The position numbers were made by a program, and so were the translations under genes. Positions 645 to 57,800 of a stretch of 64,000 nt of DNA are shown piece by piece. Each line of letters starts with the position of its first letter. The first letter of the stretch is position 1. The notes under the pieces were generated by a model. The model was not told where the DNA came from and did no database searches. It saw only the letters and a program-made list of their open reading frames with translations. This DNA comes from Gloeobacter violaceus PCC 7421. GTDB taxonomy: Bacteria; Cyanobacteriota; Cyanobacteriia; Gloeobacterales; Gloeobacteraceae. Location of the stretch: positions 558,001 to 622,000 of the forward strand of contig NC_005125.1 of assembly GCF_000011385.1 (NCBI RefSeq), written 5' to 3'.

Positions 645-2619
645 CCGTCCGGCCGTCGATTGCGGCTAGAGCTTTGCGGCCCTGGCTGGTATACAACCGC
701 AGATAGTTCCAGTAGTTCTCGTAGATGTTGACCACGTAGAAGCGCGTCTCCTTAAAAGGGATCTGCTCGATAAAATCTTCTTCGTCGGTGACGGGGTTGC
801 GCTTGAGCCACTTGGAGACGTTGCCGGGTCCGGCGTTGTAACTGGCGAGCGCCAGCATCGTGCTGCCGCCGAAGCGCTCGTGGGTATAGCGCAGATACCA
901 GGTGCCCAGGCGCAGATTGTCCACGGGGTTGGTCAGTTCGAATTGCCCCGGTTCGCGCTCGGCGATGAACCGGGCGGTGGCGGGCATAATCTGCATCAGA
1001 CCCATCGCCCCGGAGCGCGAACGAATGGCAGGCTCGAAGCGCGATTCCTGGCGAATCAGCGATGCGACCAACAGCGGATTGAGATTGCGCTCCTGGGACC
1101 ACTGCCGCAGCCCGGGGGCATAGAAGAGCGGATAGGCCTGCTCCCAGGCGCGCGGGTCGGCGGGCGGCTCGGCAAACAAAGTAAGGGTCGCCTGGTTGAT
1201 CGATCTGAGGTGCTGGCCGAGGCGGGCGCGCAGTTGCGATTCGGCGAGCTTTTGGGTGGGAGAGAGCTTGCAGCGGTAGGTCTCCGACTGCCACTGTTGC
1301 TCGGCCTCGGAGATTTCGCCCAGGGCCAGCAGTTCGCGCAGGGCGGCGGAGGTACCCGCCAGCGGCAGGGGAGGCTGCGACCAGCGCACCGAGACGACGG
1401 ATTGGTCGATGTTATAACTGCCGTCGGCCAGACCCAGCCGGGCGGCGGAGCGCCAGGCGTAGTAGCTGCGGGGATAGCGCTTGAGCACTTCGCGAAATTG
1501 GGAGCGGGCCTCGGCGGTGGCCCCGGCCTGCTCGGCCCACTTGCCGAGCCAAAAAGCCGCCTTGGGCGCAAACGGATCGGCCGGGTGGTTGCGCACCAAC
1601 CAGCGGGCATAGGAGCGGGCCGCTCCCGTATTGCCGCGCTCGGCGCTCTGGGCGGCCAGTTCCCAGGCGGCGTTGGGAGCTTTGGCGCTTTGGGGGTAGC
1701 GCTCCACCAACCGCCGGTATAAGGGAATGGCCATCTCGGGAGCGTCCAGGCGACGCGCGGCGATCTGGCTGCGCGCCCAGAGCACTTCGTCGCCGCGCTC
1801 GGCGGAGGCGCGCTCCCATGGTTCGAGCGCAGCAAAAGCCTCGCCCGCCCCCAGCAACTCGGCGCGCTCGAAGGCCGCATCGAGCACCAGAGGCGATTCG
1901 GGGAAGCGCCGCAACACCAGTTCGTAGAGTTCCCGGGCGGCCGGTTTGTCCCCCAACTTGCGCTGGAGACGGGCCCGCTCGAGCAGGTTTTCGGGGGTAG
2001 CGGGGGCGCGCTCGTAGGCGGCGAGGGCCTGTTTGGCGTTGACCCGCCGATAAATAGAAGCCACCAACTGCCATTCGGCCGGGGAGAGTTCGCCGATTTT
2101 TTCGCGCCGGGTCGCCATCGCGTAGGCGAGGGTGCTCTCGGGAAAACGGGCGAGCAGCGCTCCAGCCAGGGTGTGATCGTCGGGGTCGCGCACCAGCGCC
2201 CGCTCCAGCGCCTCGCGGGTGCGATAGTGATCCGGATAGCCGTTCAGCAGTGGGAGCAGAGCGGCACGATCCTGGCGGGCCAGCAAGGCCAGCGCGTCGG
2301 GAACCAGTGGGCTTTTGGGGTGGGCCTCCAGCCAGCGGCGGCCCTCGCCGCTGGCAACGGCAAGCTTCAACCCGATGCGTTCGGCCAGGGCCGGGTAGGA
2401 CGCGGCCAATCCTGCCAGTTGCCGGCGGGCCTCGGCGTAATCGCCCCGCACGAAAGCGGCGCTTCCCCGGCGGTAGCGCCCGGAGCGATCCTGACTGGAG
2501 AGGGCCACCAGGGGACTATCCTCCGTCGGCGGCTTTGGAAAGGCGACCCAGGCGAGACCCAGAGCCCCCGCCAGACTGGCGGCGATTAGCAGCGTCCTGG
2601 TCTTGAAGCGAAACGGCAT
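625..2619 (-). CDS. slt: Soluble lytic murein transglycosylase (Slt70-like)
   Basis: A 664-residue exported enzyme that cleaves the MurNAc-GlcNAc bond of peptidoglycan with formation of 1,6-anhydro-MurNAc. A membrane or signal segment lies at residues 8-28. A long alpha-superhelical region of TPR-like repeats (about 50-450) follows, then the SLT domain (about 490-640) with RQESRFEP carrying the catalytic Glu, GAMGLMQIMPATA and ALASYNAGPGNVSKW. Length and order match Slt70. I chose the ATG at 2619; a GTG at 2628 would overlap the upstream amidase stop. The gene lies 5 bases after the amidase gene, so the two peptidoglycan hydrolases are likely co-transcribed. Confidence 0.93.
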   Translation of the reverse strand: MPFRFKTRTLLIAASLAGALGLAWVAFPKPPTEDSPLVALSSQDRSGRYRRGSAAFVRGDYAEARRQLAGLAASYPALAERIGLKLAVASGEGRRWLEAHPKSPLVPDALALLARQDRAALLPLLNGYPDHYRTREALERALVRDPDDHTLAGALLARFPESTLAYAMATRREKIGELSPAEWQLVASIYRRVNAKQALAAYERAPATPENLLERARLQRKLGDKPAARELYELVLRRFPESPLVLDAAFERAELLGAGEAFAALEPWERASAERGDEVLWARSQIAARRLDAPEMAIPLYRRLVERYPQSAKAPNAAWELAAQSAERGNTGAARSYARWLVRNHPADPFAPKAAFWLGKWAEQAGATAEARSQFREVLKRYPRSYYAWRSAARLGLADGSYNIDQSVVSVRWSQPPLPLAGTSAALRELLALGEISEAEQQWQSETYRCKLSPTQKLAESQLRARLGQHLRSINQATLTLFAEPPADPRAWEQAYPLFYAPGLRQWSQERNLNPLLVASLIRQESRFEPAIRSRSGAMGLMQIMPATARFIAEREPGQFELTNPVDNLRLGTWYLRYTHERFGGSTMLALASYNAGPGNVSKWLKRNPVTDEEDFIEQIPFKETRFYVVNIYENYWNYLRLYTSQGRKALAAIDGRTAMDGSN

Positions 2620-2624
2620 CGGTG

Positions 2625-4385
2625 TCACTCCGGCCGCTCGGCGTGCAGCCAACGCTCCAGCCCGCGGGTCAGCGCGCGGGCGATGCGCTCCTGGTAAGCC
2701 GGTGCAGTGATGAGCGTGTATTCGTCGGGGTGGGTCATAAAACCGAGTTCGAGCAGTACTGCCGGGGCGGCTGTCGGGCGGATCACCGCCAGACTGTCCC
2801 AATAGAGACCGTAATCGGGACGCCCGAGGTCCCGGAGCAACTGACGGTGCAGCACCTCCGCCAGTTCACGGCTTTGCATGTGGTACCAGTACACCGAAGT
2901 GCCGTACTGGCGCAACGGGTCGCCCGCATCCGGCAGGGCGTTGTGGTGCAGGCTCAAAAACACCGTGGGTTGCTTCGCCTCCAGCATCCGGGAGCGCTCG
3001 GCCAGCGGCACGTCCACATCGGCGGTGCGGGTAAAAAGTACCTCTGCCCCGGCCCGGCGCAACTGTTCACCCAGGCGCAAAGCGATCGCAAGATTGACGG
3101 TTTTTTCGGGGATGCCCGAGGGACCGATCGAGCCCGTCTGGGCGCCGCCATGGCCAGGATCAATCATCACCCGCGCCCCGGCAAGCCCGCGGCCTACCCG
3201 CGGCCCCTTGCGCAGGGCCACCACCAGCGCATTGTCCTCGTAGCGCAACTGGTAGCCCCACTGCCGCCGCTCGCGCAGATCGATATAAAAGCGCACGCCC
3301 TCCGGGGAGACCGTCTCCCACTGCACCGAGCGGATGAGCGGGTCGGGCGCGTCGAAACGAATCAAATCCGTGCGCGCCTGTGCCCCCCAGAGGGTGACGA
3401 TGAGCCGGTGCTCCTCCTGGCGCACACTCGCCGGCAAACGCATCTCCAGCGGCACGATAAGTTCGCTGCCCGCCGTCGTCACCCGGGTGCGCAGCGCCCC
3501 CACCGCACTGGTCGGCAGCGCGGTGCCCACGGGCAATGCCATCCCATCCGCCCTGGCAATCCAACCTTCGCCCTGCAGGCGCAGCCAGTCGCCACTCACG
3601 GCGGTGACCCGCGAGCGCACCCCGCGCGTGAGGGGCGAAAGCCGCGCAAATTCGGCCCCCGGCCCGGCCCGGACGATCGCTTCGGCGGCGGTGACTTCGA
3701 TCACGGTCAGCTGGCGCGGATCGAGACTGGTAATCGTGGCGGGCACCGGGGAGCTGAGTACCTGGCCGCGCCGGCGAAAATCCAGGCGCGGCTCGACATC
3801 GCGCCACGATTCGGCCGCCGCCAGACAGCCGCGATAGAAGCCGACAAGGGAGCGGCCGGCCGCACCGCCACTCAGCACCGCCGCCGCGTCCCCCGGCTCC
3901 CGAAACGGGGCGGCCTCCGCAAGGGCAATCGACTGTTCCCCGACGCGCGCCTGCAATTGGCCGCCGGGAGTCGCCCGCGCCTCAAAGCAAACCGGCTCGA
4001 AAGGCAGCACCCGCTGCTCCCCGCGCGGCAGGCGCGCTTCTAGAAACAACCGATCCCCGGGTACCGGCGGATTCGGACTCTGGCGGATGACCTGCCGCTC
4101 GACGGTTTCGCTCGCCCCATGCGTCCCCCGGAAGGTCCAGCGAAAAGTGTTGATCCCCGACTGCAGCGGCACCGTCCAGGCAAAATGGCCCGCCGGGTGG
4201 CGCGCTACTTTTTGGCCGTTGACCTGCAGACTGCCCGCCCCGGGGGCCGTACCGATGAAATAAATGCTGGCACTTTCGGTGCGGTGCCCATCGGGAGGAT
4301 AGACCAGTCGCAGGGCAGCCGCGGCCTGGGGCACCCCCAGCCAGACCGATACGAAAAGTGCAGTGGCAAACCGCATGGCGCTCAT
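2625..4385 (-). CDS. N-acetylmuramoyl-L-alanine amidase (Amidase_3) with SH3-like domain
   Basis: A 586-residue exported zinc amidase that removes stem peptides from peptidoglycan. A signal peptide covers residues 1-24. An Ig-like domain follows (about 27-90), then a bacterial SH3-like segment near residues 225-290 (AIVRAGPGAEF, GEGWIARADG), probably for wall binding. The C-terminal Amidase_3 domain (about 395-580) has all expected zinc and catalytic elements: MIDPGHGG, PEKTVNLA, SLHHNA and LLELGFMTH. An ATG at 4376 is an alternative start. The gene is first in a two-gene unit with the lytic transglycosylase, and the pair would act together in wall turnover or cell separation. Confidence 0.93.
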   Translation of the reverse strand: MSAMRFATALFVSVWLGVPQAAAALRLVYPPDGHRTESASIYFIGTAPGAGSLQVNGQKVARHPAGHFAWTVPLQSGINTFRWTFRGTHGASETVERQVIRQSPNPPVPGDRLFLEARLPRGEQRVLPFEPVCFEARATPGGQLQARVGEQSIALAEAAPFREPGDAAAVLSGGAAGRSLVGFYRGCLAAAESWRDVEPRLDFRRRGQVLSSPVPATITSLDPRQLTVIEVTAAEAIVRAGPGAEFARLSPLTRGVRSRVTAVSGDWLRLQGEGWIARADGMALPVGTALPTSAVGALRTRVTTAGSELIVPLEMRLPASVRQEEHRLIVTLWGAQARTDLIRFDAPDPLIRSVQWETVSPEGVRFYIDLRERRQWGYQLRYEDNALVVALRKGPRVGRGLAGARVMIDPGHGGAQTGSIGPSGIPEKTVNLAIALRLGEQLRRAGAEVLFTRTADVDVPLAERSRMLEAKQPTVFLSLHHNALPDAGDPLRQYGTSVYWYHMQSRELAEVLHRQLLRDLGRPDYGLYWDSLAVIRPTAAPAVLLELGFMTHPDEYTLITAPAYQERIARALTRGLERWLHAERPE

Positions 4386-48610: not shown

Positions 48611-50875
48611 CTACTCGTGTTCAAGATCGCCCACGATCAGCACATCCAGGTTGCGCACCCGGCGTACCACCTGTTCAATGACGCAGCCGTGGAGCAGTTT
48701 TTCCCAGCGCGAGCGGCGCGATTCACCCATCACCAGCAGCGTCACCCCCTGCTCGTGAGCAAGCGCGTCGATTTGCTCGGGAACCTGATTGGCGGCGGCG
48801 GGACGCTCGATAAATTCACCGCCCAACTGGCGCGTCAGTTCGCCCAGGCGCTCGACGGCCCGGGCGGTCGGCCCGTCGTCGTGCGCGCCGATGTGGGCGA
48901 CCACCAGCGGTGCGCTCAACCGGCTGGCGATGCGCGCCCCCCGGCGGATGAGTTGCTCGGCATTCGGGCGCAGATTGATGCAGACAAGCACACGGCCGCC
49001 CGGTCCATGCGCGGCCTCTTCGAGTTTGCGCGTGGTGCAGTCGTCGGCCACTTCCCGCAAGGCCAGTTCGCGTAGAGCCGACAGATTTTCGGGGCGGAAG
49101 AAATTGGCCAGCGCCTGCTCGACTTTGGCCTGGGCGTAGATTTTGCCCTCGCGCAGCCGCTGGGTGAGTTCGCCCGTGGGCAGATCCACCAGCACGACTT
49201 CGTCGGCCGCCTCGACGACCAGATCCGGCAGGGTCTCGCGGACTTTGACGCCGGTGGTGCGCTCGACGAGGGTATTGAGGCTTTCGAGGTGCTGGATGTT
49301 GAGGGTGGAGACCACATCGATGCCCGCGCCAAGCAGTACCTCTACATCCTGGAAACGTTTGGTGTTGCCGGCACCCGCGATGTTGGTGTGGGCCAACTCG
49401 TCGACGAGCACGACGGCCGGACGCCGCCGCAGCACCGCCTCGACATCCAGCTCCAAAAATGTGCGCCCCTGGTAGCCAATCGCCCGCTTGGGCACCACCT
49501 CCAGGTTCTCGATGAGGGCCGCCGTCTCGGCACGGCCGTGGGTCTCGATCACCCCGCAGACGACGTCGATGCCGCTGGCGTGCAGGTGGTGGGCTTCTTG
49601 AAGCATTGCGAAGGTTTTGCCGACGCCGGGGGCGGCACCCAGGTAAATTTTGTGCCGTCCGCAACCGTGGGCACGGCGAGAGTCCGCGCCTACGAGCAAA
49701 CAGCCGACAGCGAAGGGCGGCTGGGCTGCGACCGGAGTCAGTGGGCCGACCATCGACGACTCGGCCTCTCCCACAATCAACACGTCGATGTTGCTGGTGG
49801 TGCGCAGCAGCGTGTTGATCACCGAACCGCGCACCAGTTCTTCAGCGGGGGAGCGCAACGACTCGCCGACGATCACCTGGGTGATATTTTTTTGCAGAGC
49901 AAAGTCGATGAGAGCCCCGGCCACATCGCGGTTTTGCAGCTGCACAAATTCGCCCGCCGCCGCCTCGGTGGCCGCGCGGTGCTCCTGCAAGGTCTGCGCT
50001 TCGGGGGGAGCGAGCGGCCTACCCGTCTCGACGTAGGCCACGAACAATTCGGCGTCGAGCCGCTCGGCAATGCGCGCCCCGCGGCGGATGAGCCGGGCGG
50101 AAGCCGGATTGGTGCTTACCGCCGCGAGTACCCGTTCGCGCACCCCCGCCGGACCTGCCACGCCGTTCTTGCCCGACAGGATGTCGGCATCGACCACCTC
50201 GGCAACTGCGCGCAGGGCCAGTTCACGCAGGTAGACCAGGGTACTGCGGCGCAAAAAAGGGCTGCCGGGAGGAATGTACCTGGCCGCATCGCCGCGCTGC
50301 AGCCGCTCCAGGACCGCCTCCGGGCTCGCATCGACCAGTTGCACCTCCTCGGCACTGCGCAACAGCCGGTCGGGCACCGTCTCGTGCACAACCGCCCCAA
50401 TCAGACGTCCGGCGGCCTCGGCGACGCTTTCGAGGTGCTGGATGTTCATGGCGCTCATCACGCTCACGCCGGCATCGAGCAGCACCTCCACATCTTCGTA
50501 GCGCTTGCGGTGGCGGCTGCCGGGGGCATTGGTGTGGGCCAGCTCATCGATGAGCACCGTGGCCGGCCGCCGCTGCAAAATCGCCTCCAAGTCGAGTTCC
50601 GGGATGATCACACCCTGGTAGGCGACCTGGCGCGGCGCCATCACTTCGAGATCCGCGAGCAACGCTTCGGTGTCGGGGCGGCCGTGGGTCTCCACCCAGC
50701 CGACCACCAGATCGACGCCGCGGCGGCGCAGTCGGCGGGCCTCCTGGAGCATGCGCACGGTTTTTCCGACCCCGGGCGTGTAGCCCAGGTAAAGCTTCAG
50801 GCGACCCCGCGACAGCTGCATCAGCTCGTGCAGCAACGACTGGGGATCAGGACAGTCTTCGTTCGGGCGGAACAT
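48611..50875 (-). CDS. kdpD: Double KdpD-type sensor (two KdpD-N/USP modules, no kinase)
   Basis: A 754-residue cytosolic protein. Module 1 (about 20-375) has KdpD Walker A LGYTPGVGKTVRML (30-43), ETHGRPDTEALLADLE, Walker B-like ATVLIDELAHTNAPGSRHRK and a universal-stress-protein domain with KNITQVIVGESLRS. Module 2 (about 400-754) repeats all of these: YLGAAPGVGKTFAMLQEAHH, ETHGRAETAALIENLE, VVLVDELAHTNIAGAGNTKR, VSTLNIQHLESLN, then a second USP domain ending VTLLVMGESRRSRWEKLL. No membrane helices and no histidine-kinase domain follow. Cyanobacterial KdpD proteins are usually a single such module. It follows the response regulator by 18 bases. Confidence 0.93.
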   Translation of the reverse strand: MFRPNEDCPDPQSLLHELMQLSRGRLKLYLGYTPGVGKTVRMLQEARRLRRRGVDLVVGWVETHGRPDTEALLADLEVMAPRQVAYQGVIIPELDLEAILQRRPATVLIDELAHTNAPGSRHRKRYEDVEVLLDAGVSVMSAMNIQHLESVAEAAGRLIGAVVHETVPDRLLRSAEEVQLVDASPEAVLERLQRGDAARYIPPGSPFLRRSTLVYLRELALRAVAEVVDADILSGKNGVAGPAGVRERVLAAVSTNPASARLIRRGARIAERLDAELFVAYVETGRPLAPPEAQTLQEHRAATEAAAGEFVQLQNRDVAGALIDFALQKNITQVIVGESLRSPAEELVRGSVINTLLRTTSNIDVLIVGEAESSMVGPLTPVAAQPPFAVGCLLVGADSRRAHGCGRHKIYLGAAPGVGKTFAMLQEAHHLHASGIDVVCGVIETHGRAETAALIENLEVVPKRAIGYQGRTFLELDVEAVLRRRPAVVLVDELAHTNIAGAGNTKRFQDVEVLLGAGIDVVSTLNIQHLESLNTLVERTTGVKVRETLPDLVVEAADEVVLVDLPTGELTQRLREGKIYAQAKVEQALANFFRPENLSALRELALREVADDCTTRKLEEAAHGPGGRVLVCINLRPNAEQLIRRGARIASRLSAPLVVAHIGAHDDGPTARAVERLGELTRQLGGEFIERPAAANQVPEQIDALAHEQGVTLLVMGESRRSRWEKLLHGCVIEQVVRRVRNLDVLIVGDLEHE

Positions 50876-50893: not shown

Positions 50894-51547
50894 TTAAGGA
50901 GGAGCGATCAAACCCTTTTCGAGGGCAAGGACGGCAGCCTGGGTGCGATCGGTCGCCCCGAGCTTGCGCAGGATGGCGTGGACGTGCACCCGCACGGTGC
51001 CGCTGGAGATATGGAGCTGTCGGCCGATCTCGGGGTTGCTCGCCCCCCGGGCGATCCAGCCCAGTACCTCCCGCTCGCGCTCGGTGAGGGCGGCGGCGTT
51101 GGCGGGCGGCTCGGAGGGGGCGACGGCGAAGGCGCTGCGCACCTGGGCGAGCACCTTGGCGTCGAACCAGCCGTTGCCGGCGCTCACCTCGCGGATCACC
51201 GTGAGCAACCGATCCGGGCCGATCCCCTTCAGGCAGTAACCGTCCGCCCCCGCCTGCAGCATGGCCTGCACCAAACCGGCCTCCTCGCGCGAGGTGAGTA
51301 CCAGTACCCGGATTTCGGGGTGCTCCTGCTTGAGGCGAACGAGGGTCTGCCGGCCGTCCAGACCCGGCAGGCCGATGTCAAGCAGCACCAATTGCGGTCG
51401 GTGGCGATTCGCCAGCGCAAGGGCGGTCTCACCGTCCTCCGCCTCGGCCACCAGCTCGATCTGCGGCTGGTGGCGCAGGACCATGGCGAGGCCCATCCGA
51501 AAAAGCGGGTCATCCTCGACGAGTAGCACACGCACCCTCCCGCTCAT
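50894..51547 (-). CDS. NarL/FixJ-type response regulator of the Kdp locus
   Basis: A 217-residue regulator. The receiver domain (about 5-120) has VLLVEDDPLFRMGLAM, with the phosphoacceptor Asp57 in LVLLDIGLPGLDGRQ, the Thr/Ser in VLVLTSREE and Lys in YCLKG. The LuxR-type HTH (about 148-212) has LTEREREVLGWIARGASNPE and GTVRVHVHAILRKLGATDRT. Its ATG overlaps the stop of the histidine kinase (ATGA). A typical KdpE is an OmpR-type protein, so this is a different class of partner. It is likely to act on the divergent kdp promoter. Confidence 0.92.
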   Translation of the reverse strand: MSGRVRVLLVEDDPLFRMGLAMVLRHQPQIELVAEAEDGETALALANRHRPQLVLLDIGLPGLDGRQTLVRLKQEHPEIRVLVLTSREEAGLVQAMLQAGADGYCLKGIGPDRLLTVIREVSAGNGWFDAKVLAQVRSAFAVAPSEPPANAAALTEREREVLGWIARGASNPEIGRQLHISSGTVRVHVHAILRKLGATDRTQAAVLALEKGLIAPP

Positions 51548-52656
51548 CTTGCAGCGCTCCGGGCGAGGGCTGCGGCACCCGGCGGCACCGAGTCGGGCAG
51601 GCTCACCCCAAACAGACAACCGCCCCCCGGCCGGTTCGCCGCCCAGATCCGGCCGCCGTGGGCTTCGACGATTTGCCGGGACAGGTACAGCCCCAGGCCG
51701 GTCCCAGGGACGTGGCGGGTATTTTCGGCTTGGTAGAAGCGCTCGAAGACCCGCCGGATATCCGTGGGCGGAATGCCCGTGCCGGTGTCCTCGACCAAAA
51801 GCCGCCACTCGTCCGGCGCCCGCAACAATCGCACCGTCACCCGGCCGCCCCGGGGAGTGTGGTTGATGGCGTTACCCACCAGATTGGCCACCACCCGGCC
51901 CAGTTGCAGAGCGTCCACCGGCAGGTGTGCTCCTTCGGAGCCTTCGTACACCAGTTCGATCTGCCGGCTTACGGCCAGATCTTGCAGCACCACGATCTGC
52001 TCGGCGCACAACTCGTCGAGATCGCTCGGCTGCTTTGCGAGCGGCAGGCCCGACAGGCTGTTGCGATAGATAGCAAGCAGCGTGTCCACCAGGGCGAGCA
52101 GCTTGTGATTGCTTTTTTGCAGCATTTCGATCACCCCCAGCTGTTGGGGGCTGACCTCGCCGAACTGGCCGCGGCCAAAAAATTGCAGCGTCTGCTGGGC
52201 GCCCAACAGGGGGGTCTTCAAATCGTGGGTGAGGGTAGCCACAAAATCCGATTGTGCCCGGGAGAGTTCTTCTCTGGCCTGCAGGGCCGCCTTCTGGCGG
52301 GCGGACTCTTCCTGGATGCGCCGGTACTGAGTCCCCAGGTAGGCGACGGTGAGCAGGGCCGCCACCGTGATCGACCGATCGACCACCGCGACGCTGCTGG
52401 CCAGCGCGTCGCGGGGAAAAAGCAGGTTGGCCAGGGTCAGCACAACCCCCAGGCTGGTGACGAACACGGTGCTGCGCCGGTCGAGAAACCAGTTGGCCAG
52501 CAAAATCGGCCCGACGTAAAGATAGCCGAAGATGTACTCCGGCGGCGTCGAAAACTCCAGCACCAAGATGACGGCAAACATCAGGGCGATGTACGCGCCA
52601 ATCGGTCGAAAAGAAAAGCTGCGCCGGAGCATCTGGTACCTGTCGCGGGCTGGCAT
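51544..52656 (-). CDS. Membrane histidine kinase of the Kdp locus
   Basis: A 370-residue sensor kinase. Three to four short membrane helices occupy residues 18-105 (FRPIGAYIALMFAVILVLEF, YLYVGPILLANWF, VTSLGVVLTLANLLF). A linker helix (110-135) leads to the HisKA domain with SDFVATLTHDLKTPL, phosphoacceptor His144. The HATPase domain has VVANLVGNAINHTPRGGRV, VEDTGTGIPPTD and GTGLGLYLSRQIVEAHGG. It lacks the KdpD N-terminal and USP domains, which are on the separate downstream gene. ATG 52656 is placed before the first helix. Divergent from kdpFABC. Confidence 0.92.
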   Translation of the reverse strand: MPARDRYQMLRRSFSFRPIGAYIALMFAVILVLEFSTPPEYIFGYLYVGPILLANWFLDRRSTVFVTSLGVVLTLANLLFPRDALASSVAVVDRSITVAALLTVAYLGTQYRRIQEESARQKAALQAREELSRAQSDFVATLTHDLKTPLLGAQQTLQFFGRGQFGEVSPQQLGVIEMLQKSNHKLLALVDTLLAIYRNSLSGLPLAKQPSDLDELCAEQIVVLQDLAVSRQIELVYEGSEGAHLPVDALQLGRVVANLVGNAINHTPRGGRVTVRLLRAPDEWRLLVEDTGTGIPPTDIRRVFERFYQAENTRHVPGTGLGLYLSRQIVEAHGGRIWAANRPGGGCLFGVSLPDSVPPGAAALARSAAR

Positions 52657-52970: not shown

Positions 52971-53060
52971 ATGACCGGTCCGCTGGGCCTTTTGCTGTTG
53001 ATCACGATGGGGCTGGCAGTCTATTTGCTAGTGGTCATGATCAAGCCTGAGTGGTTCTAA
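52971..53060 (+). CDS. kdpF: Potassium-transporting ATPase small subunit KdpF
   Basis: A 29-residue peptide made of one membrane helix, [20 protein letters not shown], and the family C-terminus KPEWF. KdpF stabilises the KdpFABC complex. GGAG lies 8 bases before ATG 52971. kdpA starts 11 bases after the stop. Confidence 0.92.
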
Positions 53061-53071
53061 AGGATCAAACA

Positions 53072-54799
53072 ATGGCCTTCGAAGGTGTTTTGCAGATTGT
53101 CGCCACCCTCGTCCTGATGGTGGCGATTGTTCCGTTTTTTGGGACCTACATGGCCCGGGTCTTCCAGGGCGAATCCACCTGGCTCGACCGGGTGCTCGGT
53201 CCGATCGAGAACCTGGTGTACCGGCTGGGAGGAGTGCGGCCCGAGCTGACGATGGATTGGTGGAGCTACGCCCGAGCCGTGCTGGCGAGCAACGCCGCGA
53301 TGTTCGTGCCGGTGTTTGCCGTGCTGCTGTTGCAGGGCAGCCTACCATTGAATCCAAACGGCATCTCGGGCATGTCCTGGGATCTGGCCCTGCACACCGC
53401 CATTTCGTTTTTGACCAACACCAACCAGCAGCACTACTCCGGCGAAACCGGCGCCAGCCACCTGGCCCAGATGGTCTGCTTTCAGTTTCTCATGTTCACT
53501 TCGGCCGCCACCGGACTCGCGGTCGGGATTGCCTTTATCCGGGGCCTGCTCGGCAAACCCCTGGGCAATTTCTACGTCGATCTCACCCGCTCTGTCTCGC
53601 GCATCTTGATGCCCATCTCGATCGCCTTCGCGGTGGTGTTGCTGTCCCAGGGGGTGCCCCAGAGCCTGGGCGGCACCACAGAGGCGCAACTGGTCGATCC
53701 TTACCGGACCGAGCAGGACGGCAAGCGTGAGCAGGTGACGGCTCAGAAGCTCGTGAGCGGTCCGTTCGCCTCGATGGAGAGCATCAAAGAACTGGGCGAG
53801 AACGGCGGCGGCTCCTACGGCATCAACTCCGCCCATCCCTACGAAAACCCGAACCCCTTCACCAACCTGCTCGAAATTCTGCTGCTGCTCGCTGTGCCCA
53901 CTTCGCTGATTTACACCTTCGGAGTGCTGGCGAACAATAAAAAGCAGGGGTGGGTGTTGTTCGGGACGATCTTTGTACTTTTTGTCGGTCTGGTGGGTGT
54001 GGCTGCCCTGGGCGAGTACTGGGGCAACCCAACCGTCAATGCCCTCCTGGGAAGCGCCAATCCCAACTTCGAAGGTCAGGAAGTGCGCTTCGGCTGGGCG
54101 CAGTCGGCGCTGTTCGCCACCGCCACCACCGGGACGATGACCGGCGCGGTGAATGCCATGCACGATTCGCTCACACCGCTTGCGGGGCTGGTTACCCTTT
54201 TTAACCTGTGCCTGCAGGTGATCTGGGGTGGCCAGGGCACCGGGATCGCCTATATTCTCGTGTTTTTGATCATCGCGGTGTTTCTGACCGGTTTGATGGT
54301 GGGGCGCACGCCCGAAATTTTCGGCCGCAAGCTCGAAAAGCGGGAAGTGGCGCTGGCGAGCATCATCTTTCTGGTGCACCCCGTCATCATCCTGGTGCCC
54401 ACGGCCATTGCCCTGGCCATTCCAGGCCTCGCAGGCAATTCCAACCCCGGCTTTCACGGCTTGACCCAGGTGGTCTACGAGTACGCAAGCGCCGCAGCCA
54501 ACAACGGCTCCGGCTTCGAGGGCCTGGGGGACGCCACGCCCTGGTGGAACTTGAGCACCTCGGTGGTCCTGCTGTTGGGCCGCTACGCGCCCATCGTCGC
54601 CCTGTTGGCCCTGGCCGGGGGACTGCAGCGCAAGCAGCCGGTGCCGGAGACACCGGGCACTTTGCGCACCGACACGGTGCTCTTCGGCTCGGTCACCGCC
54701 GGAACGATCCTCATCCTGGGAGCGCTCACCTTCTTTCCGGTCTTTGCCCTGGGACCGATTGCCGAGTGGATTGCCAATCTGGCGGGCAAAACTCTGTAG
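53072..54799 (+). CDS. kdpA: Potassium-transporting ATPase channel-like subunit KdpA
   Basis: A 575-residue membrane protein with about ten helices that forms the K+ selectivity filter of the high-affinity KdpFABC pump. The four filter regions are visible around [34 protein letters not shown]-like sequence ([20 protein letters not shown]), [20 protein letters not shown] and [20 protein letters not shown]. Glycines essential for K+ coordination are present. ATG 53072 has AGGA upstream. Third gene of kdpFABC. Confidence 0.96.
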
Positions 54800-56910: not shown

Positions 56911-57477
56911 ATGTCCCCATTGCAAGAAATCGGCACCGCCGTGCGCATGACGGCGATTTTCTGGATCGGTTGCGGCCTGGCCTACCCGCTCATCTTCACG
57001 GGCTTCGCCCAGGTGGCCTTTCCCGATCAGGCCAACGGGTCGCTGGTGCGCAACGCCCAGAACCAGGTGATCGGCTCGTCGCTCATCGGCCAGAAGTTCA
57101 CCTCCGAGCGCTACTTCCACGGTCGGCCCAGCAGTATCGACTACAAAGCGGAGGCGAGCGGTGCGAGCCAACTCGCTCCCACCAACAAAGTCCTCATCGA
57201 GCGGGTCAAGGCCGATGCCGCAGCGTTTGAGGCCCAAAACGGCACCAAACCAACCATCGATCTGGTGACCACTCCCGGTTCCGGTCTCGATCCGCACATT
57301 ACCCCGGCCGGGGCGGCCGTGCAGACTGCACGGGTCTCCAGAGCCCGCAACCTTGCTCCCGAGCAGGTTCGAAAGCTCGTGTCGCAGTACACGGAGGGCC
57401 GCTTCCTCGGCATCTTCGGCGAGCCGCGCGTCAACGTGCTGGCCCTCAATCTCGCCCTCGACGGAATTCGGCGATGA
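56911..57477 (+). CDS. kdpC: Potassium-transporting ATPase subunit KdpC
   Basis: A 188-residue protein. One N-terminal membrane helix (about 10-32) is followed by a periplasmic-type domain with PDQANGSLV, GSSLIGQKFTSERYFHGRPS and SGLDPHITPAGAAVQTARVS, the family signature. It stabilises KdpAB and raises ATP affinity. The last 4 bases overlap the start of a small RCK_C-like gene. Confidence 0.95.
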   Translation: MSPLQEIGTAVRMTAIFWIGCGLAYPLIFTGFAQVAFPDQANGSLVRNAQNQVIGSSLIGQKFTSERYFHGRPSSIDYKAEASGASQLAPTNKVLIERVKADAAAFEAQNGTKPTIDLVTTPGSGLDPHITPAGAAVQTARVSRARNLAPEQVRKLVSQYTEGRFLGIFGEPRVNVLALNLALDGIRR

Positions 57478-57800
57478 AATCCCTTGAAATGCATGCCACC
57501 GCTGATTTTGACAGCCTGCGGCGAGAGCTGAACCTTCGGCAGCCGGCTCCGGCACTGGTGCGCGTCTCGGTTCTCCATCCTGTTTGCGCTGCAGATTGGC
57601 AGACTCTGCCTTTACCTCCCACCTGCCGGGTGTTATGTGTGTTGCGCCAACAGCAGGTGATCGAAGCGGAATCGTCGCTGCCGCTTGAACCGGGAGACTG
57701 GATAGTGGCTGTTGCTGCTTTGCCGGCCTACGGGCCGATGCTGGAGGCTGCGCTGGGCGATTGGTCGCGGCGGAAGCGCCGCAGATGCTCGTTAGAATAG
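57474..57800 (+). CDS. Small RCK_C-like (TrkA-C-like) protein, last gene of the kdp operon
   Basis: A 108-residue protein with ATG overlapping the kdpC stop (ATGA). The central part, RVLCVLRQQQVIEAESSLPL followed by EPGDWIVAVAALPAYG, has the beta-beta-turn pattern of RCK_C/TrkA-C domains, which bind ligands and regulate K+ channels. The first 25 residues (MKSLEMHATADFDSLRRELN) form a helix. No membrane segment is seen. Anabaena kdp operons carry an extra small gene, kdpG; I could not establish whether this is a counterpart. The family call is by eye. Confidence 0.6.
   Translation: MKSLEMHATADFDSLRRELNLRQPAPALVRVSVLHPVCAADWQTLPLPPTCRVLCVLRQQQVIEAESSLPLEPGDWIVAVAALPAYGPMLEAALGDWSRRKRRRCSLE

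What the first reader, a model, noticed from the sequence alone, without database searches (positions are those of the whole stretch)
48611..50875. Fused double KdpD sensor module without a kinase
One 754-residue protein carries two full KdpD-N plus USP units, both with intact Walker A (GYTPGVGKT, GAAPGVGKT) and DELAHTN motifs. Cyanobacterial KdpD proteins are known as single truncated modules; a head-to-tail duplication would allow intramolecular dimerisation or two different ligands (ATP, cyclic di-AMP). It is paired with a separate membrane histidine kinase and a NarL regulator, so the canonical KdpD is split and its input half duplicated.
Basis: partly seen in the sequence, partly recalled or inferred. 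Interest (0 to 1): 0.75.

Follow-up and report, generated by a model that had tools for sequence, protein, structure and literature searches.

The report
Tandem KdpD/Usp regulator of potassium pump
This cyanobacterial protein carries two copies of a potassium-pump regulator (an unusual protein kinase joined to a small-molecule-binding domain) in one chain, a layout kept throughout its order but not seen in the other cyanobacteria sampled, so it is a real, modest variation on a known switch.

Summary
It is not an assembly fusion. All eight sampled Gloeobacterales genomes that encode KdpD (five genera, two families) have it, and none of the roughly 160 other cyanobacterial genomes with KdpD does. 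A second set of tandems in Chloroflexota/Dormibacteria arose separately, and their C-terminal module has lost kinase residues. The interpretation needs changing. 'Without a kinase' is misleading, because the KdpD domain is itself an atypical serine kinase that shuts the pump by phosphorylating KdpB (PMC11018627). The neighbouring histidine kinase and NarL regulator are the usual cyanobacterial kdp-linked pair, not the split-off half of canonical KdpD. Most likely the protein is a tandem, c-di-AMP-responsive KdpB kinase. Both modules keep Walker A, the Walker B Asp-Glu and the adenine-site Arg. The two halves look specialised: kinase domain 2 is the better conserved, while only Usp1 keeps the Ser and Tyr of the S. 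aureus c-di-AMP motif. So module 2 is probably the main kinase and module 1 the main receptor. That division of labour is inferred. New variant of a known kind.

The parts
48611..50875 (-). Tandem KdpD/Usp protein, 754 aa
   Evidence: Open frame; PF02702 x2 and PF00582 x2; NF038185 786.7 bits; conserved in 7 further Gloeobacterales genomes
50180..50803 (-). KdpD domain 1 (residues 25-232): Walker A GYTPGVGKT, Walker B D110/E111, adenine-site Arg R191 kept; aromatic adenine residue replaced by V40
   Evidence: Alignment against an Enterobacteriaceae KdpD with E. coli numbering
49766..50140 (-). Usp domain 1 (residues 246-370): keeps the S244 and Y271 equivalents (S254, Y281) of the S. aureus c-di-AMP motif
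   Evidence: Usp alignment; motif from PMC4686210; fold search includes 7ji4
49664..49765 (-). Linker between the modules (residues 371-404), poorly conserved and predicted disordered
   Evidence: 30-47% identity to other genera; pLDDT under 50 at 370-390
49040..49663 (-). KdpD domain 2 (residues 405-612): full serine-kinase set, K420/T421, F422, D492/E493, R573; most conserved part
   Evidence: closest solved structure 2r8r
48626..48997 (-). Usp domain 2 (residues 627-750): S244 equivalent lost (N634), Y271 equivalent is H661
50894..51547 (-). Response regulator, receiver + LuxR/GerE, 217 aa; its ATG overlaps the histidine kinase stop (ATGA); 18 bp upstream of the tandem gene
   Evidence: Pfam/NCBIfam; junction sequences
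51544..52632 (-). Membrane histidine kinase, 362 aa from the start supported by orthologues (longer ORF reaches 52899)
   Evidence: HisKA and HATPase_c; orthologues beside kdp in other cyanobacteria
52971..53060 (+). kdpF, 29 aa ([29 protein letters not shown]), easily missed; conserved in four other Gloeobacterales
53072..54799 (+). kdpA (likely start ATG 53072; longer GTG frame from 53051)
   Evidence: PF03814, TIGR00680
54812..56896 (+). kdpB, with the target motif ...DESAITGES... (TGES at residue 173)
   Evidence: TIGR01497 1127 bits; only KdpB over the cut-off in the genome
56911..57477 (+). kdpC
   Evidence: PF02669, TIGR00681

Best explanation
A soluble regulator of the KdpFABC potassium pump made of two short-KdpD units in one chain. 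Each unit has an atypical serine kinase domain (KdpD) and a nucleotide-binding Usp domain. When potassium is plentiful, c-di-AMP binds (mainly Usp1), the kinase domains (mainly KdpD2) phosphorylate the TGES serine of KdpB, and the pump stops. The adjacent histidine kinase and NarL regulator separately control kdp transcription. Shown here: the architecture, its conservation, the retained kinase residues, the divergence of the two units, the neighbourhood, and a diadenylate cyclase in the genome. Known for relatives: KdpB-directed serine kinase activity (E. coli, Deinococcus geothermalis) and c-di-AMP binding (S. aureus, Synechococcus elongatus). Inferred: activity of this protein, c-di-AMP as its ligand, and the division of labour between units.
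For: Two KdpD+Usp modules and no histidine kinase domain. Catalytic residues defined in PMC11018627 (Walker A GKT, Walker B Asp-Glu, adenine-site Arg) are present in both modules of all eight genomes; the aromatic adenine residue is F/Y in 7 of 8 module-2 copies and in 3 of 8 module-1 copies. Divergent kdpFABC next door; one KdpB over the cut-off, with TGES. Diadenylate cyclase in all 15 cyanobacterial genomes checked, with a second, weaker match in Gloeobacter. Cyanobacterial short KdpD binds c-di-AMP in S. elongatus (PMC5897029); short KdpD of D. geothermalis is stimulated by c-di-AMP (PMC11018627). Usp1 keeps S244 (8/8) and Y271 (7/8); Usp2 has lost S244 (8/8) and keeps Tyr in 3/8. KdpD2 is more conserved than KdpD1 in 15 of 15 genus pairs, Usp1 more than Usp2 in 13 of 15.
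Against: No biochemistry on this protein. The c-di-AMP motif is an imperfect guide: D. radiodurans and D. ficus KdpD lack the Ser, yet their relative from D. geothermalis responds to c-di-AMP. Module 1 keeps nearly all catalytic residues, so it may be an active kinase too. The 15 genome pairs are not independent, and for Usp2 only residues 627-707 could be compared in all rows. TGES is shared by P-type ATPases (established knowledge), so its presence says little.
Confidence: 0.55

Rival explanations
1. Two equivalent serine kinase/receptor units, fused for dosage, avidity or a covalent pseudo-dimer, without division of labour.
For: All Walker A/B residues and the adenine-site Arg are kept in both units in 8/8 genomes.
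Against: The units differ consistently: KdpD2 > KdpD1 in conservation in 15/15 genome pairs, Usp1 > Usp2 in 13/15, the Usp2 loop lost the Ser in 8/8, and module 1 lost the aromatic adenine residue in 5/8. No confident packing between units (pTM 0.37).
Confidence: 0.2
2. One reading: the input half of a split KdpD, passing potassium or nucleotide signals to the neighbouring histidine kinase and through it to the NarL regulator.
For: Tight operon: histidine kinase and regulator overlap by ATGA, regulator and KdpD are 18 bp apart; the three genes stay together in most Gloeobacterales.
Against: The histidine kinase is not the C-terminal half of KdpD. In several other cyanobacteria, in Deinococcus and in one Gloeobacterales genome (G083) the kinase/regulator pair is on the opposite strand from kdpD. 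Short KdpD has an established direct target, KdpB (PMC11018627).
Confidence: 0.15
3. Module 1 is a decaying duplicate with no function of its own.
For: Faster evolution of KdpD1; aromatic adenine residue lost in 5/8; the G083 copy also lost HT of DELAHTN. The second tandem lineage does have a degenerate module.
Against: GKT, Walker B Asp-Glu and Arg invariant in 8/8 module-1 copies across two families, and Usp1 STN invariant.
Confidence: 0.08
4. Assembly frameshift or chimera joined two genes.
For: None found.
Against: Same architecture in eight genomes of five genera, including single-contig assemblies.
Confidence: 0.01

Closest known systems
Short KdpD/Usp atypical serine kinase (e.g. D. geothermalis KdpD; NCBIfam NF038185)
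   Same: KdpD_N + Usp, no histidine kinase, catalytic motifs, kdp neighbourhood
   Different: Two units in one chain, with diverged Usp ligand loops and a diverged module-1 adenine residue
Cyanobacterial single-module KdpD (e.g. S. elongatus Synpcc7942_1729, which binds c-di-AMP)
   Same: Same well-supported clade on the module tree; Usp1 shares the STx loop
   Different: Single module of typically 360-490 aa open frame; which Gloeobacterales module is its direct orthologue is unresolved
Full-length KdpD (E. coli)
   Different: Has transmembrane, GAF and histidine kinase domains, all absent here
Chloroflexota/Dormibacteria tandem KdpD/Usp proteins found here (L076-L081, L123, L165-L167)
   Same: Two KdpD/Usp units in one chain, near kdpABC
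   Different: Separate origin on the tree; C-terminal unit lost the Walker A Lys and/or Walker B Glu, so probably a pseudokinase

Membership tests
Short KdpD/Usp serine kinase (NF038185, PMC11018627) | KdpD_N domain | tested here: met
   PF02702 twice
Short KdpD/Usp serine kinase (NF038185, PMC11018627) | Usp domain after KdpD_N | tested here: met
   PF00582 twice; fold search hits 7ji4
Short KdpD/Usp serine kinase (NF038185, PMC11018627) | No histidine kinase domain in the chain | tested here: met
Short KdpD/Usp serine kinase (NF038185, PMC11018627) | Walker A, Walker B Asp-Glu and adenine-site Arg | tested here: met
   Both modules, 8/8 genomes
Short KdpD/Usp serine kinase (NF038185, PMC11018627) | Aromatic adenine-site residue (W39 in E. 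coli, F/Y elsewhere) | tested here: inconclusive
   Met in module 2 (F422); not in module 1 (V40)
Short KdpD/Usp serine kinase (NF038185, PMC11018627) | One KdpD/Usp unit per chain | tested here: not met
   Two units; a variant of the family rather than a typical member
Short KdpD/Usp serine kinase (NF038185, PMC11018627) | Phosphorylates KdpB, controlled by c-di-AMP | not testable with these tools
   Needs purified proteins
Canonical full-length KdpD | Transmembrane, GAF and histidine kinase domains in the same chain | tested here: not met
Canonical KdpDE split into two chains | Neighbouring histidine kinase is the KdpD C-terminal half | tested here: not met
   Only the kinase core is similar; transmembrane part matches other cyanobacterial kdp-linked kinases
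Canonical KdpDE split into two chains | Regulator is KdpE (OmpR type) | tested here: not met
   Receiver + GerE; best model NarL

The most novel reading that the evidence does not exclude
The tandem split the work of one short KdpD between two linked copies: a c-di-AMP receptor unit (module 1) that gates a KdpB serine kinase unit (module 2). A separate tandem in Chloroflexota went further, to a kinase plus a pseudokinase.
Probability: 0.3. Interest if true: 0.6.

Novelty: new variant of a known kind. Interest (0 to 1): 0.42.

Why it matters
The serine kinase activity of KdpD was described only in 2024, and how the Usp domain controls it is open. A natural tandem whose two copies have diverged in different domains lets the kinase and receptor functions be assigned by testing the units apart. 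It also shows that the duplication happened at least twice, with different outcomes. It does not change the known logic of Kdp regulation.

Tried and rejected
Frameshift or assembly fusion: rejected. Module 2 being another ATPase: rejected (PF02702 match at residues 406-612; 54% identity to 2r8r). A second module for a second pump: rejected, since no Gloeobacterales genome checked has more than one KdpB over the cut-off. One shared origin of all tandems: not supported; the Gloeobacterales and Chloroflexota modules fall in different well-supported clades. My early impression that the two lineages carry the same two unit types in opposite order came from Walker A wording alone and was not borne out by the trees. 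Whether module 1 and module 2 arose by duplication inside Gloeobacterales, or module 2 (or 1) is the direct orthologue of the single KdpD, is not resolved: none of three groupings is rejected (p-AU 0.36-0.45). A c-di-AMP riboswitch near kdp: none found by Rfam. Packing of the two units in the model: no confident answer.

Full report
What is there. Window 48611-50875, minus strand, is one intact frame of 754 codons. It has KdpD_N-Usp-KdpD_N-Usp architecture and belongs to NCBIfam NF038185, 'KdpD-like non-kinase potassium sensor' (786.7 bits, two stretches). The units are 44% identical in protein. An AlphaFold2 model gives four well-formed domains with disordered linkers and no confident relative placement (mean pLDDT 76.5, pTM 0.37). 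Closest solved structures are KdpD_N of Pseudomonas syringae (2r8r, 54% identity) and, more weakly, the c-di-AMP-bound Usp domain of a KdpD (7ji4). The genome is one contig of 4,659,019 bases, a size that from my own knowledge matches Gloeobacter violaceus PCC 7421; 'Gloeobacterales' below is my name for the order of this genome, whose members the tool shows only as same genus, family or order.

Neighbourhood. The gene is the third of a tight set on the minus strand: histidine kinase (51544-52632 or longer), NarL/LuxR-type regulator (50894-51547, overlapping the kinase stop by ATGA), then, after 18 bp, the tandem gene. On the plus strand lie kdpF (52971-53060, a 29-residue frame conserved in four other Gloeobacterales), kdpA, kdpB and kdpC. 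The same divergent kinase-regulator-KdpD set with kdpABC is seen in G013, G061 and G072; in G083 the kinase/regulator pair faces a kdpABC-KdpD(2x) operon. A homologous pair faces kdp in several other cyanobacteria and, more distantly, in Deinococcus (PMC5716572). In Synechocystis the pair Sll1590 (Hik20) and Sll1592 (Rre19, NarL subfamily) is described as corresponding to KdpD and KdpE (PMC7090099); I did not test that our pair is its orthologue. The kinase here resembles the C-terminal half of canonical KdpD only over the kinase core (62-95 bits), against 266-290 bits over the transmembrane and kinase parts for kinases beside kdp in other cyanobacteria. So it is not a split-off piece of KdpD.

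Distribution. In 390 cyanobacterial genomes, 171 have KdpD over the cut-off. The eight tandem genomes are all Gloeobacterales, in two families and five genera; the ninth genome of the order lacks both KdpD and a KdpB over the cut-off. The 14 other genomes with more than one match were re-scored and showed fragments, frames broken by stops, or weak matches to other proteins, and no tandem. In one search only the best candidates per genome were scored, so a very divergent extra module could have been missed. Outside cyanobacteria, a scan of named genomes and a phylum search turned up tandems in Dormibacteria-like and other Chloroflexota genomes, close to kdpABC. The phylum name Chloroflexota for these rests on one record title (Candidatus Dormiibacterota) and my knowledge of GTDB, which places that group there.

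Origin. On trees of the modules, Gloeobacterales module 1 and module 2 are each a clade (100/100 and 100/99), so the duplication predates the sampled Gloeobacterales. Both fall with the short KdpDs of other cyanobacteria, Deinococcus and Bacillota (100/98). Chloroflexota tandem units fall elsewhere, with full-length KdpD and Actinomycetota, so the two tandem lineages are separate. Which Gloeobacterales unit is closest to the single cyanobacterial KdpD is unresolved. In the Chloroflexota tandems the second unit has lost the Walker A Lys (GTT, GAT) and/or the Walker B Glu, which predicts a pseudokinase. In Gloeobacterales both units keep these residues.

Mechanism. PMC11018627 shows that the KdpD domain is an atypical serine kinase that phosphorylates KdpB Ser162 and stops the pump; that it needs Walker A, Walker B Asp109/Glu110 and the Trp39/Arg190 adenine pair; and that a short KdpD/Usp protein from Deinococcus geothermalis is stimulated by c-di-AMP. 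PMC5897029 reports c-di-AMP binding by the short KdpD of Synechococcus elongatus. Here, across eight genomes, GKT, the Walker B Asp-Glu and the Arg are invariant in both units. The aromatic adenine residue is F/Y in 7/8 of module 2 (Cys in one) and, in module 1, Val, Thr, Leu, Val, Tyr, Tyr, Gln, Tyr. In the Usp domains, the Ser equivalent to S. aureus S244, needed for c-di-AMP binding (PMC4686210), is invariant in Usp1 and lost in all Usp2; the Tyr271 equivalent is Tyr in 7/8 Usp1 and 3/8 Usp2. Conservation crosses over: KdpD2 exceeds KdpD1 in 15/15 genome pairs, Usp1 exceeds Usp2 in 13/15 (pairs not independent). The genome encodes one clear diadenylate cyclase and a second, weaker match, and PMC5986932 reports two DAC copies in G. 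violaceus. The simplest reading is a tandem c-di-AMP-responsive KdpB kinase with a receptor-biased first unit and a kinase-biased second unit. The first half follows from established family function; the second is inference, weakened by Deinococcus KdpD proteins that lack the Ser.

Verdict. Real, conserved, and not described in the papers I could search (the library lacks most subscription journals and supplements were not open to me). It is a variant of the known short KdpD, more interesting as an experimental handle than as a new principle.

Noticed in passing
window 52971-53060 (+): A 29-codon kdpF, conserved in four other Gloeobacterales (ending in KPEWF), lies between the histidine kinase and kdpA and is easily missed; kdpA probably starts at 53072.
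   Followed up: yes
L076-L081, L123, L165, L166, L167: Chloroflexota/Dormibacteria tandem KdpD/Usp proteins whose C-terminal unit has lost the Walker A Lys and/or Walker B Glu: predicted kinase plus pseudokinase.
   Followed up: partly
L172:1180-2343 and 2408-3622 (-): Two separate short KdpD genes in a row after kdpABC in one Chloroflexota genome, an unfused counterpart of the tandem.
   Followed up: partly
L169:7984-9114, L170:7890-8969, L171:7843-8922, L173:8622-9707: Stand-alone, very divergent KdpD/Usp proteins of about 360 aa with a broken Walker A (GxGA/CT), with no kdp genes found on the fetched stretch, in Chloroflexota that also have full-length KdpD; neighbours in L171 include a DUF2298 membrane protein and an NB-ARC/TPR protein.
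   Followed up: partly
L140:7234-9912 (-): One Gloeobacter-genus genome (G061) also carries a full-length 893-residue KdpD with a regulator, besides the tandem.
   Followed up: no
window 57474-57800 (+): A 108-codon frame overlapping the kdpC stop, conserved in close relatives, without a Pfam or NCBIfam match.
   Followed up: partly
L080 (genome G394): A Dormibacteria-like genome with two loci that each hold a KdpD of 864-911 codons and a tandem KdpD/Usp protein.
   Followed up: no
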